Shown piece after piece: positions 724-5,105 of a stretch of DNA of 5,766 bases. The notes under the pieces are model-generated. The model did no database searches and was not told the origin of the DNA. It saw only the letters and a program-made list of their open reading frames with translations. The stretch is from a bacterium. GTDB taxonomy: Bacteria; 4484-113; JALSIF01. The stretch covers positions 1 to 5,766 of the forward strand of contig JALSIF010000033.1 of the NCBI GenBank assembly GCA_026981635.1, read 5' to 3'. Position numbers and translations under genes: made by a program. Positions within the stretch are counted from its first letter, which is position 1, and every line of letters starts with the position of its first letter.

Positions 724-1197
724 ATGGGTGGGATGGTGAGGCGCTGGCACTTCAACCCCTACCACCAGCGGATTGACGAGTCCCTGGAGAAGGACCCCGG
801 TGAGGTGAGGGCCGACACCGAGTGGCCCGCCTGGCACGTCTTTCGCCAGCCCAAGCGGGGGGAGGCCCATGTCCTGGTGGGGATGGTCCATGCCCCCGAT
901 GCGGAGACCGCCCTGCTTCTGGCCAAGGAGCAGTACGCCCGGCGCGAAGACTGCGTAAATCTGTGGGTGGTGCGCACCGACCAGGTCCACGCCACCAGCT
1001 ATGAGGACGCCGACATGTTTGAGTTTGTAAGCGACCGCACCTACCGCCTCACTCGCGGGTTCCCGGTGGGCGAGAAGCTCAAGAAGATCAAGGCGGGAGA
1101 CCCCTACGCCGAGCGCCTGGAGACCCTGGAAGAGATAGAAAAAGAGCACGCGGGAAAGAAAATACCCCAGGAGGCTAGCGGTGACGGCTCCGACTGA
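724..1197 (+). CDS. paaB: Phenylacetyl-CoA epoxidase (1,2-ring) subunit PaaB, extended form
   Basis: The 157-residue product holds a clear PaaB core at about residues 33-115: 'EWPAWHVFRQPKRGEAHV', then 'VGMVHAPDAETALLLAK', 'YARRE' and 'NLWVVRTDQV'. This parallels E. coli PaaB as I remember it (WP.YEVFVR.K.G.SH.HVGSLHA.D...AL..ARD.YTRR.E..SIWVV). In characterised systems PaaB is a small non-catalytic subunit that bridges PaaAC heterodimers of the cytoplasmic multicomponent oxygenase, which forms an epoxide on phenylacetyl-CoA. E. coli PaaB is about 95 residues. This protein adds about 32 residues in front and a charged, helix-prone tail of about 40 residues (Lys/Glu rich). The start is uncertain: AGGT at 717-720 is only three bases from ATG 724, and ATG 733 in the same frame is an alternative. 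The last 17 bases overlap paaC, so the two are probably translationally coupled. The substrate is not proven. Confidence 0.87.
   Translation: MGGMVRRWHFNPYHQRIDESLEKDPGEVRADTEWPAWHVFRQPKRGEAHVLVGMVHAPDAETALLLAKEQYARREDCVNLWVVRTDQVHATSYEDADMFEFVSDRTYRLTRGFPVGEKLKKIKAGDPYAERLETLEEIEKEHAGKKIPQEASGDGSD
1169..1174 (+). promoter_or_regulatory. Ribosome binding site AGGAGG of paaC
   Basis: AGGAGG lies inside the paaB coding sequence, six bases before GTG at 1181. It decides the non-ATG start of paaC and supports coupled translation across the 17-base overlap. Confidence 0.85.
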
Positions 1198-1987
1198 CCC
1201 CGCCCTGAGGGAGGCCCTGGCCTCCTACCTCCTCGCCCTGGCCGACGATGAGCTGATCATCGGCCACCGCCTCTCCGAGTGGACCGGCCTGGGGCCCATC
1301 ATTGAAGAGGACATCGCCTGCTCCTCCATGGCCCAGGATGAGCTGGGCCACTCCCTCACCTACCACCGCCTGCGCAAATCCCTGGGGGTGGAGGAGGACC
1401 CCGACACCCTAAACTTCACCCGTCCCCCCGAGCAGTTTCTAAACGCCCTCCTCTGCGAGCTTCCCCGGGGCGACTACGGGTTTACCCTGGTGCGCCAGAC
1501 CCTCTATGACCTAGCCGAGTTCACCCGCCTGGAGGCCCACGCCGAGTCCTCCTCCTGGGAGGAGCTGGCCGAGGCCAGCCGAAAGCTCATGCAGGAGGAG
1601 AAGTACCACTTGGCCCACGGCGAGGCCATGACCCGCCGCCTGGCCACCGCCACCGACGAGTCCCGCCGGCGCATCCGCGATGCCTTCCATGAGCTTTTCC
1701 CCTACGCCCTGGGCCTGTTTGAGCCCCTGCCCCAGGAGGAACTGCTGGTCCAGGCGGGGATAAAGCCCGGCGAGAAGGAGCTTATGGACCGTTTCCTGGA
1801 CCGGTTGGACGGTTTCCTGGAGGGGACCGACCTGGAGGTGCCCGCCATTCGCTCCCTGGAAGGTGGCTGGGAACCTAAGGTGAGGCCGGTATTCGGCGGC
1901 CGCAAGGGTGAGCACACTGAACACTTGGCGAAGCTCCTTGGGGCCATGCAGATGCTGGTTCGGGAGCACCCCGGCGCCCAGTGGTAG
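1181..1987 (+). CDS. paaC: Phenylacetyl-CoA epoxidase subunit PaaC (ferritin-like fold)
   Basis: GTG start, TAG stop, 268 residues, close to the roughly 250 of known PaaC. Landmarks shared with E. coli PaaC as I recall it: 'LADDELIIGHRLSEWTG' (15-36 region), 'DTLNFTR..EQFLNALLCELP' (76-95), 'EEKYHLAHG' (139-147), and the C-terminal 'GGRKGEHTEHLAKLLGAMQ' (239-257) ending in 'PGAQW'. PaaC normally pairs with catalytic PaaA as a structural subunit with a degenerate di-iron site. Here the metal-type motifs look intact: Glu24 in helix 1, Glu54-x-x-His57 in helix 2 ('QDELGH'), Asp110/Glu113 in helix 3, and Glu140-x-x-His143 in helix 4. That is the E...ExxH...E...ExxH order of ferritin-like di-iron proteins. 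E. coli PaaC has Gln in place of the first motif's His. No paaA is adjacent, so this subunit could be structural with a paaA elsewhere, or itself metal-binding. Confidence 0.9.
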   Translation: MTAPTDPALREALASYLLALADDELIIGHRLSEWTGLGPIIEEDIACSSMAQDELGHSLTYHRLRKSLGVEEDPDTLNFTRPPEQFLNALLCELPRGDYGFTLVRQTLYDLAEFTRLEAHAESSSWEELAEASRKLMQEEKYHLAHGEAMTRRLATATDESRRRIRDAFHELFPYALGLFEPLPQEELLVQAGIKPGEKELMDRFLDRLDGFLEGTDLEVPAIRSLEGGWEPKVRPVFGGRKGEHTEHLAKLLGAMQMLVREHPGAQW

Positions 1988-2033
1988 GAAGGCGGAGCCC
2001 GAACGAGATAACCTTGACTTAGAAGACCCCAGG

Positions 2034-2540
2034 ATGAGCGAGGAAAAGGGAAAAGAGGGAGAGAGGAGCGAGCGGGAACGCCGGGTCTGGGAGCTTCTAG
2101 CCCAGGTCACCGACCCGGAGATCCCCACCGTAAACATCGTTGAGCTGGGCCTGATTGAGTACGTCCAGGTGGAGGGAAACCAGGTTGAGGTGGGCTTCGT
2201 CCCCACCTTTGCCGGCTGCCCCGCCCTGGGGGTAATAAAGATCCAGATCGCCAAGGTGCTCATGGAGGCGGGCTTTGCCCCCCGGGTAAAGGTTTTGGAC
2301 ATCGTCTGGTCCACCGACCGCATCGCCGAGAGCGCCCGCCAGAAGATGAAGGAGATCGGCCTCTCGCCCCCGCGCCGCCATGGGGGAAGCTTTGACCCCC
2401 ACCTCACTGAGAAGGTGGCCTGCCCCTACTGTGGCTCAACCGAGACGGTGATGGAGAGCCCCTTCGGCCCCACTTTATGTCGGGCCATCTACTACTGCCG
2501 CGCCTGCCAGCAGCCCTTTGAGAAGTTCAAGGAGCTTTAG
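2034..2540 (+). CDS. paaD: Phenylacetate-CoA oxygenase accessory protein PaaD (DUF59/MIP18 domain plus zinc ribbon)
   Basis: 168 residues from ATG 2034 to TAG 2538-2540, close to E. coli PaaD in length. Residues about 17-110 form the DUF59 (MIP18-like) domain, with 'VTDPEIPTVNIVELGLI' (25-41) and the conserved Cys62 in 'FAGCPALGVI'. The C-terminal part is a Cys-rich ribbon: Cys130-x-x-Cys133, Cys149, and Cys155-x-x-Cys158 before 'PFEKFK', as in PaaD of known operons. PaaD is thought to help assemble the metal or Fe-S centres of the epoxidase. The frame is open further upstream (to about 1908), but that stretch overlaps paaC in a shadow frame. I chose 2034 because the product begins just before the domain and AGAAG at 2021-2025 can serve as a weak binding site. 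The N-terminus is Lys/Glu/Arg rich. There are 46 bases between paaC and this start. Confidence 0.9.
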   Translation: MSEEKGKEGERSERERRVWELLAQVTDPEIPTVNIVELGLIEYVQVEGNQVEVGFVPTFAGCPALGVIKIQIAKVLMEAGFAPRVKVLDIVWSTDRIAESARQKMKEIGLSPPRRHGGSFDPHLTEKVACPYCGSTETVMESPFGPTLCRAIYYCRACQQPFEKFKEL

Positions 2541-2562: not shown

Positions 2563-2901
2563 TCAGTAGTACCTGGCCAGCACCCGGGCGATGGTGCGAA
2601 GTTTATCCTCTACCACCCTTCTCTCTTCTCCCTCCTCTCCCAGCCGGTCGGCGGTCTTTTCCAGCAGCAGCGAGAGCATAAAGGAGAAGGACTTGTTCAG
2701 CGCCTGGCGGGCGGCGGCCAGCTGCTGGGCGATGGCCTCGCAGGGGGCTTCCTCCTCCACCATCCGGCGAATGGCCCGAAGCTGCCCCTCAATGCGGGAA
2801 AGCCTTGCCTCCAGGGCCTGCTTCTCCCCCTCGCTGATCAGCCTTACCTCCTCGGTGACCAGGGGGTGCTCCGATTCTGAGCGGTGGTTGTGCTTTGCCA
2901 T
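2563..2901 (-). CDS. CsoR/FrmR/RcnR-family (DUF156) transcriptional repressor, atypical sensor site
   Basis: 112 residues, last gene of the minus-strand operon. The signature 'RLSRIEGQLRAIRRMVEEE' (33-51) followed by Cys54 and 'QLAAARQALNK' marks the all-helical DUF156 family, whose tetramers bind GC-rich pseudo-palindromes and release DNA on sensing Cu, Ni/Co, formaldehyde or sulfane sulfur. In CsoR the next ligands lie 25 (His) and 29 (Cys) residues after the first Cys. CstR keeps the second Cys at +29 with Asn at +25. Here those positions are Leu79 and Thr83, so Cys54 is the only cysteine. The N-terminus instead has several His (residues 4, 6, 12), and the C-terminal helix is long, ending in Tyr-Tyr. 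It starts 15 bases after the DsrE2-like gene, with GGGGA (plus 2910-2914) as binding site. Context points to control of sulfur genes through the operator at 5090-5105. The inducer is unknown. Confidence 0.88.
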   Translation of the reverse strand: MAKHNHRSESEHPLVTEEVRLISEGEKQALEARLSRIEGQLRAIRRMVEEEAPCEAIAQQLAAARQALNKSFSFMLSLLLEKTADRLGEEGEERRVVEDKLRTIARVLARYY

Positions 2902-2916
2902 GATGAGTGTCCCCGG

Positions 2917-3516
2917 CTAGATGAACAGGGCGGTGCGGGCCCTCAGGGCTTCGCCCAGGAAGGTGCCCACTCCCCCAAACTCCACCCCCTCCATGAGCTC
3001 GCCGTCTGATATCCCCATCACCTGCTGGCTCATGTCGCAGGAGACGAAGCGCACGCCGAGCTCTCGGGCAAGCTCCATCAGCTCCTCCAGGGAGCTTACT
3101 CCCTGCTTTTTCATCATCGCCCGAAGCATCTTTGCCCCCATGCCGAAGAAGTTGAGCTTGGATACCCCAAGCCCCCGGGTGGAGGCGGGGCTCATCAGGG
3201 CCATCATCTTCTGCATGAAGTTCTTCCCCGCCAGCTTTTTCCCCTTGCGGATGGCGGAGAGGCCCCAGAAGGTGAAGAACATGGTCACCTCCATCCCCAT
3301 GGCGGCCGCCCCGGTGGCGATGACGAAGGCGGCCAGCACCCGGTCAAGGTCGCCGGAAAAGACCACCATGGCTACCTTGTCCTCCGGCACCCGCCGGCTG
3401 AGCTCCTCCACCCTCTGCTCAAGCTTTTTGATCCGCTCCGCCAGCTCACTTGCTCCACCAGCACCGTTGGCGGTGCCGGCCTCGCCCACGCTCTTTTCCA
3501 TCTGGTTCTCTTTCAT
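2917..3516 (-). CDS. DsrE2-like (DsrE/DsrF-type) sulfur-transfer protein with N-terminal coiled coil
   Basis: 199 residues. Residues about 24-43 ('ELAERIKKLEQRVEELSRR') are heptad-like and predict a short coiled coil, after a small Gly/Ala-rich N-terminus. The rest is the DsrE2 type: 'KVAMVVFSGDLDRVLAAF' (47-64), a hydrophobic 'ATGAAAMGMEVTMFFTFWGL' segment (67-86), a Lys/Met-rich middle, and Cys160 in 'VRFVSCDMSQQVMGI', followed by a Gly-rich end. Cys160 is the only cysteine and matches the position of the sulfur-accepting Cys in DsrE-like proteins. DsrE2 proteins are often encoded beside TusA and rhodanese and are thought to relay persulfide sulfur; the hydrophobic segments suggest membrane contact in some members. 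GGAGG (plus 3526-3530) is nine bases before the ATG. It is 24 bases downstream of tusA and 15 upstream of the repressor, so co-transcription is likely. Confidence 0.87.
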   Translation of the reverse strand: MKENQMEKSVGEAGTANGAGGASELAERIKKLEQRVEELSRRVPEDKVAMVVFSGDLDRVLAAFVIATGAAAMGMEVTMFFTFWGLSAIRKGKKLAGKNFMQKMMALMSPASTRGLGVSKLNFFGMGAKMLRAMMKKQGVSSLEELMELARELGVRFVSCDMSQQVMGISDGELMEGVEFGGVGTFLGEALRARTALFI

Positions 3517-3540: not shown

Positions 3541-3804
3541 TCAGGCGGTCTTCCTCAGGTAGTGGAGGTAGAGCTTTCTGCCCTCCTCCTCCACCTCGTG
3601 CTGGGCCAACAGCTCAAAGTCACTGGCGCTCTGGGCCCAGCCCTGAAAGTCCTTGATGGAACCGCGGTCGGTGGCCACCACCCGGAGCACCTGCCCCGGC
3701 TCAAGCTCCTTTAGGGCCTGGCGCGCCTTCACCACCGGCATAGGACAGCTTAGCCCCCTGGCGTCCACCTCCAGGTCAAACTGGATCTCCACCTGGTCAC
3801 TCAT
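3541..3804 (-). CDS. tusA: TusA-like sulfur carrier protein
   Basis: 87 residues. 'VDARGLSCPMPVVKARQAL' near the N-terminus is the TusA/SirA signature (D.RGL.CP.PV...). Its Cys in the CPxP motif carries persulfide sulfur, and it is the only cysteine. The rest ('ELEPGQVLRVVATDRGSIKDFQGW' region) fits the two-layer alpha/beta fold, including the usual 'L..G..L.V..TD.GS..D...W' order. Length is typical (about 80). Start: ATG at 3804 is chosen because GGAGGTG (plus 3811-3817) lies six bases before it. The frame extends upstream to 3888 only as an overlap with the preceding gene. The start overlaps that gene's stop in ATGAGTGA, so translation is coupled. TusA probably takes sulfur from the rhodanese or DsrE2 partner encoded on either side. 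Confidence 0.93.
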   Translation of the reverse strand: MSDQVEIQFDLEVDARGLSCPMPVVKARQALKELEPGQVLRVVATDRGSIKDFQGWAQSASDFELLAQHEVEEEGRKLYLHYLRKTA

Positions 3805-5062
3805 CACCATCACCTCCATCGGGGTTTCCGTTGCCCTCGGCCCCCTGATAGGCCTGGGCCAGGGCGCAGATGTTCTTGCCCAGCTCAAGCTCGCTTGCCT
3901 TCTCCTCGTCGGGTCTCACCAGCCCGCCGTTTACCCGCTTGATCTCCACATACTGCTCGGGAAACTCGGGCAGGCTGGAAAGTAGATAGCGGATGTAGGC
4001 CTCCTCCCCCTCCTCAAGCTTACTAAGTCCCTCGTTTTCTTTCCTCAGCCGACCAAGCTCGCGGCGAAAGATCCCCCACTCATCGGCCTCGGCCAGCTTG
4101 CTGAAGTGACCCGGCAGCACCACCGTCTCGCCGGGAAGCTCGGCCAGCCGCCTGAGGGAGCGGTAGTGGATGGGCGCCCAGCGCTCCCCCTGTCCGCCCA
4201 GGTCGGGCCGCGCCACCGAGTCAATGAAGATGGTGTCCCCGGTAAGCAGGAAGCGGTCGTCCACCACCAGGGCGGTGTTGCCCAGGGTGTGGCCGGGCAC
4301 ATGTAGCACCCTCACCTTGCTCTCCCCAAAGCCGATCTCGCTTCCCTCCCTCAGGTAGTCATACTCAAGTTCAGCCGGCAGCATGTCAATGGGGTGGATG
4401 CCGTCGTAGGGGTGGAGGTAGTAGGGAACCCCAAGGCGGGCGGCAAGCTCCGGGCCCCCGCTGATGTGGTCGGCGTGGGCGTGAGTATCAATCACCGCAA
4501 CGAGCTTTGCCCCCCGCTCCCTGAGCACCTCCTCGTAGGGGCGAAGATGCCTGCCCGGGTCAACCACCACCGCTTCACCCCGGCTGATGGCCACATAGCT
4601 GAGGCATCCCCGGGCGATGCGCTGTCCCTGGAGTAGGGTGAGCCGCTCCCCCTGCTCCACCAGAGCGAAGCGGTAAAAGTTGCCCCAGGCCACCATCCCG
4701 CCGGCCAGGTTCACCGCCCGGTAGCCCAGCCTGCGCAGCGCCTGGGCCACCAGGTCGGAGGTGTCCCCCTTGGCGCAGACCACCAGGATCTCCCCTTCGC
4801 GGGGAAGCCGGTCGGTCAGGTGGCGCTCGGCGTAGGTGGCGAGGGCCCCCACCACATCGTCTCCCTCCAGGTAGTCAAACATCTCAAAGTAGGGCTGGTT
4901 TACCGCCTCCAGGGGCCCGTCCCGGCCCTCCAGCCGCCAGCGTTCAAACTCGTCCCGGTTGCGCACATCCAGCACGAAGGGGCGCTCCCCGGCCATCAGC
5001 CGATCGGCAAGTGCGCTCGCCCCGATCTGAAAGTCACTCTGAGTTTGGGTCATGCTTTCCAT
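3797..5062 (-). CDS. Rhodanese-metallo-beta-lactamase fusion, persulfide dioxygenase (ETHE1/CstB-like)
   Basis: 421 residues. Residues about 12-130 are a rhodanese domain: 'PFVLDVRNRDEFERW' (28-42), and an active loop at Cys96 ('VVCAKGDTSD') leading into 'LGYRAVNLAGGMVAW'. Residues about 138-330 are a metallo-beta-lactamase domain with 'THAHADH' (193-199), His258 in 'VPGHT', Asp276 in 'TGDTIFID', 'ARPDLGG' (284-290) and His319 in 'LPGH'. The 'THAHADHISGG' and 'RPDLGG' forms are those of ETHE1-type persulfide dioxygenases, which oxidise glutathione or coenzyme A persulfide to sulfite with one Fe(II). A tail (about 340-421) carries 'VEIKRVNGGL' and Cys399, ending Gly/Asp-rich. The order is rhodanese first, the reverse of CstB. 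Start: ATG 5062 follows GGAGGT (plus 5072-5077) by nine bases. The frame is open to ATG 5086, but that would place the binding site inside the coding region and abut the operator. First gene of the operon. Confidence 0.9.
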   Translation of the reverse strand: MESMTQTQSDFQIGASALADRLMAGERPFVLDVRNRDEFERWRLEGRDGPLEAVNQPYFEMFDYLEGDDVVGALATYAERHLTDRLPREGEILVVCAKGDTSDLVAQALRRLGYRAVNLAGGMVAWGNFYRFALVEQGERLTLLQGQRIARGCLSYVAISRGEAVVVDPGRHLRPYEEVLRERGAKLVAVIDTHAHADHISGGPELAARLGVPYYLHPYDGIHPIDMLPAELEYDYLREGSEIGFGESKVRVLHVPGHTLGNTALVVDDRFLLTGDTIFIDSVARPDLGGQGERWAPIHYRSLRRLAELPGETVVLPGHFSKLAEADEWGIFRRELGRLRKENEGLSKLEEGEEAYIRYLLSSLPEFPEQYVEIKRVNGGLVRPDEEKASELELGKNICALAQAYQGAEGNGNPDGGDGDE

Positions 5063-5077: not shown

Positions 5078-5089
5078 GATGAGCATACC

Positions 5090-5105
5090 ATACCCCGTAG
5101 GGTAT
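5090..5105. promoter_or_regulatory. CsoR-family operator (inverted repeat)
   Basis: ATACCCCGTAGGGTAT consists of perfect 6-base arms ATACCC and GGGTAT around the 4-base centre CGTA. AT-flanked runs of C and G in this arrangement are typical of CsoR/CstR-type operators. It lies 27 bases upstream of the ATG at 5062, where a repressor would block the promoter. An extra ATACC half (5085-5089) directly abuts it. The operon it precedes encodes a CsoR-family protein as its last gene. The binding itself is inferred. Confidence 0.78.

What the first reader, a model, noticed from the sequence alone, without database searches (positions are those of the whole stretch)
2563..2901. CsoR-family repressor with only one cysteine and no usual +25/+29 ligands
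After Cys54, the family's +25 and +29 ligand positions are Leu and Thr. Copper sensing (Cys-His-Cys) and CstR-type two-Cys polysulfide crosslinking therefore both seem impossible by the standard route. The sensor may use Cys54 alone (persulfidation or a disulfide between subunits), N-terminal His residues 4, 6 and 12, or a different ligand. In a sulfur operon this could be a new sensing mode.
Basis: partly seen in the sequence, partly recalled or inferred. Interest (0 to 1): 0.65.

Follow-up and report, generated by a model that had tools for sequence, protein, structure and literature searches.

The report
One-cysteine sulfur-operon repressor of CsoR fold
This is a small DNA-binding repressor that probably switches on a sulfur-detoxifying operon when its single cysteine is modified by reactive sulfur; related repressors normally need a second cysteine for this, and in this branch of the family that second cysteine has been moved or, as here, lost.

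Summary
The protein (2901-2563, minus strand, 112 aa) is a DUF156/CsoR-fold repressor with one Cys (C54). Its only His residues (4, 6, 12) lie in a low-confidence N-terminal tail; L79 and T83 fill the +25/+29 ligand positions, and two gapless structural alignments support that register. It is the last gene of a persulfide dioxygenase-rhodanese/TusA/DsrE2 operon. The operon promoter carries ATACCCCGTAGGGTAT, a typical CsoR/CstR-type operator found exactly once in the 1.75-Mb genome. Loss of +25/+29 is not private to this protein: it marks a clade (66 of 132 sampled DUF156 proteins; +29 Cys in 0/66 inside versus 60/66 outside), often beside the same sulfur genes. In that clade the second Cys sits at +24 (44/66) or +30 (10/66), or is absent (12/66). 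All ten nearest relatives in the tree have Cys+30; the window lost it. A second one-Cys member sits in the same four-gene operon in another lineage (L161). Best reading: a sulfane-sulfur-responsive autorepressor working by modification of C54 alone, a one-Cys variant of the CstR kind. The N-terminal-His idea has little support. The sensing chemistry is inferred, not shown.

The parts
2563..2901 (-). DUF156/CsoR-fold repressor with one Cys (112 aa)
   Evidence: PF02583 E=3e-18; 3-helix model, pLDDT 85; closest PDB folds are InrS, FrmR, CsoR and CstR
2740..2742 (-). codon of Cys54, the only Cys and the conserved DUF156 sensing Cys
   Evidence: translation; conserved in 64/66 clade members
2650..2667 (-). 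codons L79-A84: +25 (L79), +29 (T83) and +30 (A84), which hold His, Cys or Cys in relatives
   Evidence: sequence; gapless structural alignments; clade table
2866..2892 (-). codons H4-H12 in the low-confidence N-terminal tail; not conserved in the nearest relatives
2917..3516 (-). DsrE2-like sulfur carrier, same operon
   Evidence: PF13686 E=5e-51
3541..3804 (-). TusA-like sulfurtransferase with CPMP motif, same operon
   Evidence: PF01206 E=5e-19
3797..5062 (-). rhodanese-metallo-beta-lactamase fusion, probable persulfide dioxygenase; first gene of the operon (alternative ATG at 5086)
   Evidence: PF00753 E=2e-20 and PF00581 E=4e-9; HxHxDH, GH and TGD motifs in the sequence; RBS GGAGGT before ATG 5062
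5090..5105 (.). palindrome ATACCCCGTAGGGTAT, probable operator of this repressor in the operon promoter
   Evidence: 0.01 expected by chance in the window; only exact copy in the genome; same site in relatives' promoters

Best explanation
The protein is a repressor of its own operon (persulfide dioxygenase-rhodanese, TusA, DsrE2, repressor). In its reduced form it binds the palindrome ATACCCCGTAGGGTAT in the promoter and blocks transcription. When sulfane sulfur (persulfides or polysulfides, or a persulfide handed over by TusA or DsrE2) accumulates, Cys54 is modified, most likely to Cys54-SSH or a mixed disulfide with a small thiol. The tetramer then leaves DNA and the operon that oxidises the sulfur is expressed. 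No resolving Cys takes part. Shown here: fold, single Cys, missing ligands, operon, unique operator, clade membership, loss of the relocated second Cys, and a second one-Cys case in the same operon. Inferred: that it binds this operator, that sulfane sulfur is the inducer, and that Cys54 modification alone is enough.
For: One Cys, and no His in the folded core. The operon codes for sulfane-sulfur enzymes and has one CsoR-type operator, unique in 1.75 Mb. The promoter block TACCCTACGGGGTATGGTAT differs at one base from TACCCTAGGGGGTATGGTAT in Bipolaricaulota, where it lies between TTGACA and TATAAT. CsoR-type sites are about 33 times denser just upstream of DUF156 genes than elsewhere in the related loci. 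The PDO-TusA-DsrE2-(YeiH)-(YeeE)-CsoR order is kept in Bipolaricaulota and in another lineage, f93. Sulfur genes flank 25 of 55 clade loci and 0 of 25 other DUF156 loci. Cys54 is conserved in 64/66 members of the clade. L161 has the same four-gene operon with a one-Cys repressor. Literature: S. coelicolor CsoR in a PDO circuit is persulfidated only on Cys37, with no bridge (PMC7533328); MarR-family MgrA senses sulfane sulfur with its unique Cys12 as Cys12-SSH (PMC11211675).
Against: No experiment. In S. coelicolor CsoR the second Cys is not persulfidated, yet its Ser mutant no longer responds, so persulfidation of the first Cys alone failed there. CstR works by Cys31-Cys60 di-, tri- and tetrasulfides (PMC9774590). 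T. thermophilus TTHA1953 needs its Cys pair for the redox effect and did not respond to NaHS (PMC10318464). The genome has another DUF156 with a CstR-like Cys-Tyr-Cys site (L002) that might bind the same operator.
Confidence: 0.58

Rival explanations
1. Same regulator and same inducer, but the second thiol comes from elsewhere: Cys54 of one protein pairs with a Cys of a partner (TusA, DsrE2 or the Cys-Tyr-Cys paralogue L002 in a mixed tetramer), so the chemistry is still a two-thiol bridge.
For: TusA and DsrE2 carry reactive Cys and are co-transcribed; the genome has a C-Y-C paralogue next to a thioredoxin-like gene; second thiols are essential in S. coelicolor CsoR.
Against: No mixed DUF156 tetramer is known to me; no copy of the operator pattern turned up in L002; no data on partners.
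Confidence: 0.17
2. The protein has lost inducer sensing: it is a constitutive or weakly regulated autorepressor, and Cys54 is a relic.
For: Second Cys lost; long end branch (0.75-1.3 changes per column); in L087/L088 even the first Cys is gone, yet the gene stays beside the persulfide dioxygenase.
Against: Cys54 is kept, as in all nine Massilia/Undibacterium one-Cys members and in L160; operator, promoter and operon are intact.
Confidence: 0.15
3. Metal or aldehyde sensor using Cys54 plus the N-terminal His tail (RcnR- or FrmR-like).
For: H4, H6 and H12 in the N-terminal tail; FrmR senses formaldehyde with Pro2 and Cys35 (PMC5016687).
Against: Tail is low-confidence in the model, absent in the nearest relatives and 10-18 residues further from the Cys than RcnR His3; position 2 is Ala, not Pro; His60 and the +29 ligand of RcnR/FrmR are missing; no metal efflux or aldehyde gene in the operon.
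Confidence: 0.06
4. It does not control this operon: it controls other genes, while L002 or another factor binds the 5090-5105 site.
For: TTHA1953 controls distant genes; Massilia/Undibacterium clade members examined (L064, L091) are not beside sulfur genes.
Against: The only exact site in the genome is in this operon's promoter; gene order and site are conserved together in relatives.
Confidence: 0.04

Closest known systems
CstR (Staphylococcus/Streptococcus; YrkD of B. licheniformis)
   Same: DUF156 fold; conserved first Cys; represses an operon with persulfide dioxygenase, TusA/rhodanese-type and DsrE2-type genes; CsoR-type palindrome
   Different: CstR needs Cys+29 for interprotomer di-, tri- and tetrasulfides; here +29 is Thr and no second Cys exists; the protein falls in another clade of the tree
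S. coelicolor CsoR-like SCO0620 (ScCsoR)
   Same: persulfide dioxygenase circuit; operator ATACCN6GGTAT; only Cys37 becomes a persulfide, no bridge
   Different: it has a second Cys (Cys66) and the C66S mutant is unresponsive
T. thermophilus TTHA1953
   Same: DUF156 protein controlling sulfur genes by thiol chemistry
   Different: Cys39/Cys68 pair (+29); different operator (TACNNTACNNNNGTANNGTA); regulon is Sox, far from its own gene
Bipolaricaulota and f93-lineage orthologues (L043, L044, L144, L030, L031)
   Same: same clade, gene order PDO-TusA-DsrE2-...-repressor, and near-identical promoter and operator in Bipolaricaulota
   Different: they carry a second Cys at +30 (ERNC) and YeiH/YeeE genes in the operon; the window has Ala at +30 and neither gene
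FrmR / RcnR / InrS
   Same: fold and conserved Cys; best Foldseek hits are InrS and FrmR
   Different: they use His60 (+25) plus Pro2, His3 or a +29 ligand, none of which is present here

Membership tests
DUF156 / CsoR-RcnR family (PF02583) | HMM match and three-helix fold | tested here: met
   PF02583 E=3e-18, above cut-off; model matches InrS, FrmR, CsoR and CstR
DUF156 / CsoR-RcnR family (PF02583) | conserved first Cys at the N-terminal end of helix 2 | tested here: met
   Cys54, helix 54-84
DUF156 / CsoR-RcnR family (PF02583) | tetramer that releases DNA when the Cys site is occupied | not testable with these tools
   needs protein
CsoR (copper) | Cys-x25-His-x4-Cys ligand set | tested here: not met
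   L79 and T83 in gapless structural register
CstR (persulfide) | second Cys at +29 for interprotomer polysulfide bridges | tested here: not met
   T83; single-Cys protein
CstR (persulfide) | linked to sulfane-sulfur oxidation genes | tested here: met
   PDO-rhodanese, TusA and DsrE2 in the operon
CstR (persulfide) | CsoR/CstR-type palindromic operator in the operon promoter | tested here: met
   ATACCCCGTAGGGTAT at 5090-5105; matches ATACCN6GGTAT of ScCsoR
FrmR (formaldehyde) | N-terminal Pro2 next to Cys35, and His60 | tested here: not met
   Ala2 in a tail about 20 residues longer; +25 is Leu
RcnR (Ni/Co) | His3, Cys35, His60, His64 | tested here: not met
   no His in residues 13-112
Relocated-Cys DUF156 clade found here | grouping with it in a tree with the ligand columns masked | tested here: met
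   51-row clade 99/96; sets of 3, 9 and 10 rows holding the window starred; finer placement unresolved once L160 is added
Relocated-Cys DUF156 clade found here | second Cys at +24 or +30 | tested here: not met
   L78 and A84; one of 12 members out of 66 without it

The most novel reading that the evidence does not exclude
A one-Cys sulfane-sulfur sensor of the CsoR fold: modification of the single conserved Cys, with no resolving thiol or metal ligand, suffices to release DNA. It lies in a DUF156 clade in which the second Cys has moved along helix 2 (+24 or +30) and been lost repeatedly while operator and sulfur operon stayed.
Probability: 0.45. Interest if true: 0.62.

Novelty: new variant of a known kind. 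Interest (0 to 1): 0.5.

Why it matters
CsoR-family persulfide sensors are described as dithiol switches. A clade in which the second thiol sits at +24 or +30, or nowhere, while promoter, operator and operon are kept, gives a natural series for asking what the resolving Cys is for: specificity against peroxide and metals, reversibility, or the allosteric step itself. The one-Cys members (window, L161) against the +30-Cys orthologues in the same operon are a direct comparison.

Tried and rejected
Register shift: MAFFT put a one-residue gap in helix 2; structural alignments are gapless and no Cys or His enters the site either way. Frameshift hiding a Cys: the C-terminus ...RVLARYY matches ...RILTRYA of relatives, so the frame is intact. 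Wrong start codon: an RBS-like GGGGA precedes ATG 2901; a shorter start would only remove the His tail. Viral contigs and plasmids: no relative. Nine genomes of the same class: no close orthologue, so whether the Ala at +30 is fixed in the group cannot be tested. Window + L160 as one clade (single loss of the Cys): not favoured (log-likelihood 13 lower) but not rejected (p-AU 0.089). sigma-70 scan of the window promoter found nothing, although the relatives have TTGACA/TATAAT around the same operator. Two primary CstR papers (Luebke 2014, Fakhoury 2021) are not in the held library, so whether this clade was noticed there could not be checked. Only a monomer model was made, so the distance from Cys54 to +24/+30 of the partner subunit was not measured.

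Full report
Observation. The ORF at 2901-2563 (minus strand, 112 aa) is a DUF156 protein (PF02583 E=3e-18). It has one Cys (54) and three His (4, 6, 12), all three in the N-terminal tail. Residues +25 and +29 from the Cys are L79 and T83. AlphaFold on an alignment of 29 sequences gives three helices, 24-49, 54-84 and 92-111, with mean pLDDT 85; residues 1-20 average 53-60. VIA-align places the model without gaps on 6ahx (60/60 residues) and on S. pneumoniae CstR 7mq1_B (83/83), so L79 and T83 are the structural counterparts of the His and Cys ligands. Z-scores of 9-12 are not decisive for helical bundles, but the top rows are nearly all DUF156 proteins and the sequence match is independent. 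The folded core contains no His and no second Cys, so neither a CsoR nor a CstR site can be built.

Surroundings. On the minus strand, before the repressor, lie a rhodanese-metallo-beta-lactamase fusion (persulfide dioxygenase type), TusA and DsrE2, close-packed. The four genes converge on a paaB-paaC-paaD run on the plus strand. In the promoter lies ATACCCCGTAGGGTAT (5090-5105), 28 bases upstream of the likely start codon at 5062. In the window the core pattern has a chance expectation of 0.01. In the genome ATACCCNNNNGGGTAT occurs exactly once and TACCCNNNNGGGTA exactly once. S. coelicolor CsoR binds ATACCN6GGTAT (PMC7533328), which this site fits.

Relatives. The genome has three other DUF156 genes: L001 (Cys-His-Cys), L002 (Cys-Tyr-Cys, next to a thioredoxin-like gene) and L003 (Cys-His-Cys, next to a MerT/HMA gene). 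No close orthologue was found in the nine genomes of its class. A scan of GTDB genomes with a five-sequence profile gave Bipolaricaulota (43-47% identity) and many Proteobacteria; further Bipolaricaulota came from a phylum search. Because the profile was made from this type, the frequencies below describe the sample, not nature.

Tree and ligand table. In a tree of 132 DUF156 proteins the window lies in a 66-member clade (SH-aLRT 97). With the five ligand columns masked and a careful search, the corresponding 51-member clade has 99/96 support and the window's 10-member subset 99/97. Outside the clade +29 is Cys in 60/66 and +25 is His in 48/66; inside, 0/66 and 1/66. The first Cys is kept in 64/66. 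The second Cys is at +24 in 44 (Proteobacteria, plus L137), at +30 in 10 (all the window's neighbours in the 11-member group) and absent in 12: the window, nine Massilia/Undibacterium proteins, and two Comamonadaceae-type proteins that also lack the first Cys.

Context. Gene order is conserved: PDO-TusA-DsrE2-YeiH-CsoR in L043 and L139, with YeeE genes added in L144, L145, L146 and L162. Proteobacterial members often sit beside a persulfide dioxygenase, rhodanese, TauE or YeeE gene. Sulfur genes were found in 25 of 55 clade loci and 0 of 25 other DUF156 loci (Fisher p about 1e-5; one duplicate row, L052, was counted as outside, and related rows inflate the test). CsoR-type sites occur at 0.97 per kb within 450 bases upstream of DUF156 genes and 0.03 per kb elsewhere. 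The window promoter block TACCCTACGGGGTATGGTAT differs at one base from TACCCTAGGGGGTATGGTAT in L043, L044 and L144, where it sits between TTGACA and TATAAT. A second one-Cys repressor, L160/L161, sits in the same four-gene operon PDO-TusA-DsrE2-CsoR, likewise with neither YeiH nor YeeE between DsrE2 and the repressor (its contig ends 3' of the gene). It groups with the f93 proteins that have Cys+30 (100/97), which suggests a separate loss; joining it with the window is disfavoured but not rejected (p-AU 0.089).

Mechanism. The conserved operator and self-containing sulfur operon make an autorepressor induced by sulfane sulfur the best reading. The one-Cys step is inferred. For it: only Cys37 of ScCsoR is persulfidated and no bridge forms, and MgrA of the MarR family responds through one Cys as Cys-SSH (PMC11211675). 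Against it: ScCsoR C66S is dead, CstR forms Cys31-Cys60 polysulfide bridges, and TTHA1953 uses a Cys pair. A partner thiol (TusA, DsrE2 or L002) and loss of sensing are the main rivals. The His tail is unlikely: low confidence in the model, absent in L043/L044, and further from the Cys than RcnR His3.

Verdict. Confirmed observation; partly supported interpretation; a new variant of a known kind. The broader result is the clade in which the second Cys of a CsoR-fold sulfur regulator is moved or lost while operator and operon stay. I found no paper on this clade in the held library, but key CsoR-family papers are not held, so its novelty is not fully checked.

Noticed in passing
L087 4980-5225 and L088 69-350: Clade members from Ottowia and a related Pseudomonadota genome in which the conserved sensing Cys is Ser or Thr and the only Cys left is in helix 1 (LCARL), yet the gene is still directly followed by a persulfide dioxygenase-rhodanese gene.
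   Followed up: partly
L064, L077, L086, L089, L091, L093, L095, L112, L116: Massilia/Undibacterium one-Cys DUF156 group with a three-residue insert before the Cys; no PDO, TusA, DsrE2 or YeeE gene was found in the flanks, and L064/L091 lie beside unrelated genes (aldo/keto reductase, periplasmic binding proteins); effector unknown.
   Followed up: partly
L003 (same genome, contig C24): A Cys-His-Cys DUF156 gene next to a MerT-like/HMA fusion gene, suggesting DUF156 control of a mercury or other metal uptake locus.
   Followed up: partly
L002 1162-1509 (same genome, contig C146): Cys-Tyr-Cys DUF156 protein with an extra N-terminal Cys cluster (CGCGDFCH), followed by a thioredoxin-fold protein.
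   Followed up: partly
window 724-2540 (+): paaB-paaC-paaD genes of phenylacetyl-CoA epoxidase, convergent with the sulfur operon.
   Followed up: no
L043 1580-1640, L144 1442-1500, L063 4866-4926: Two CsoR-type operators in tandem in each promoter; the window has only one plus an extra TGGTAT half-site.
   Followed up: no
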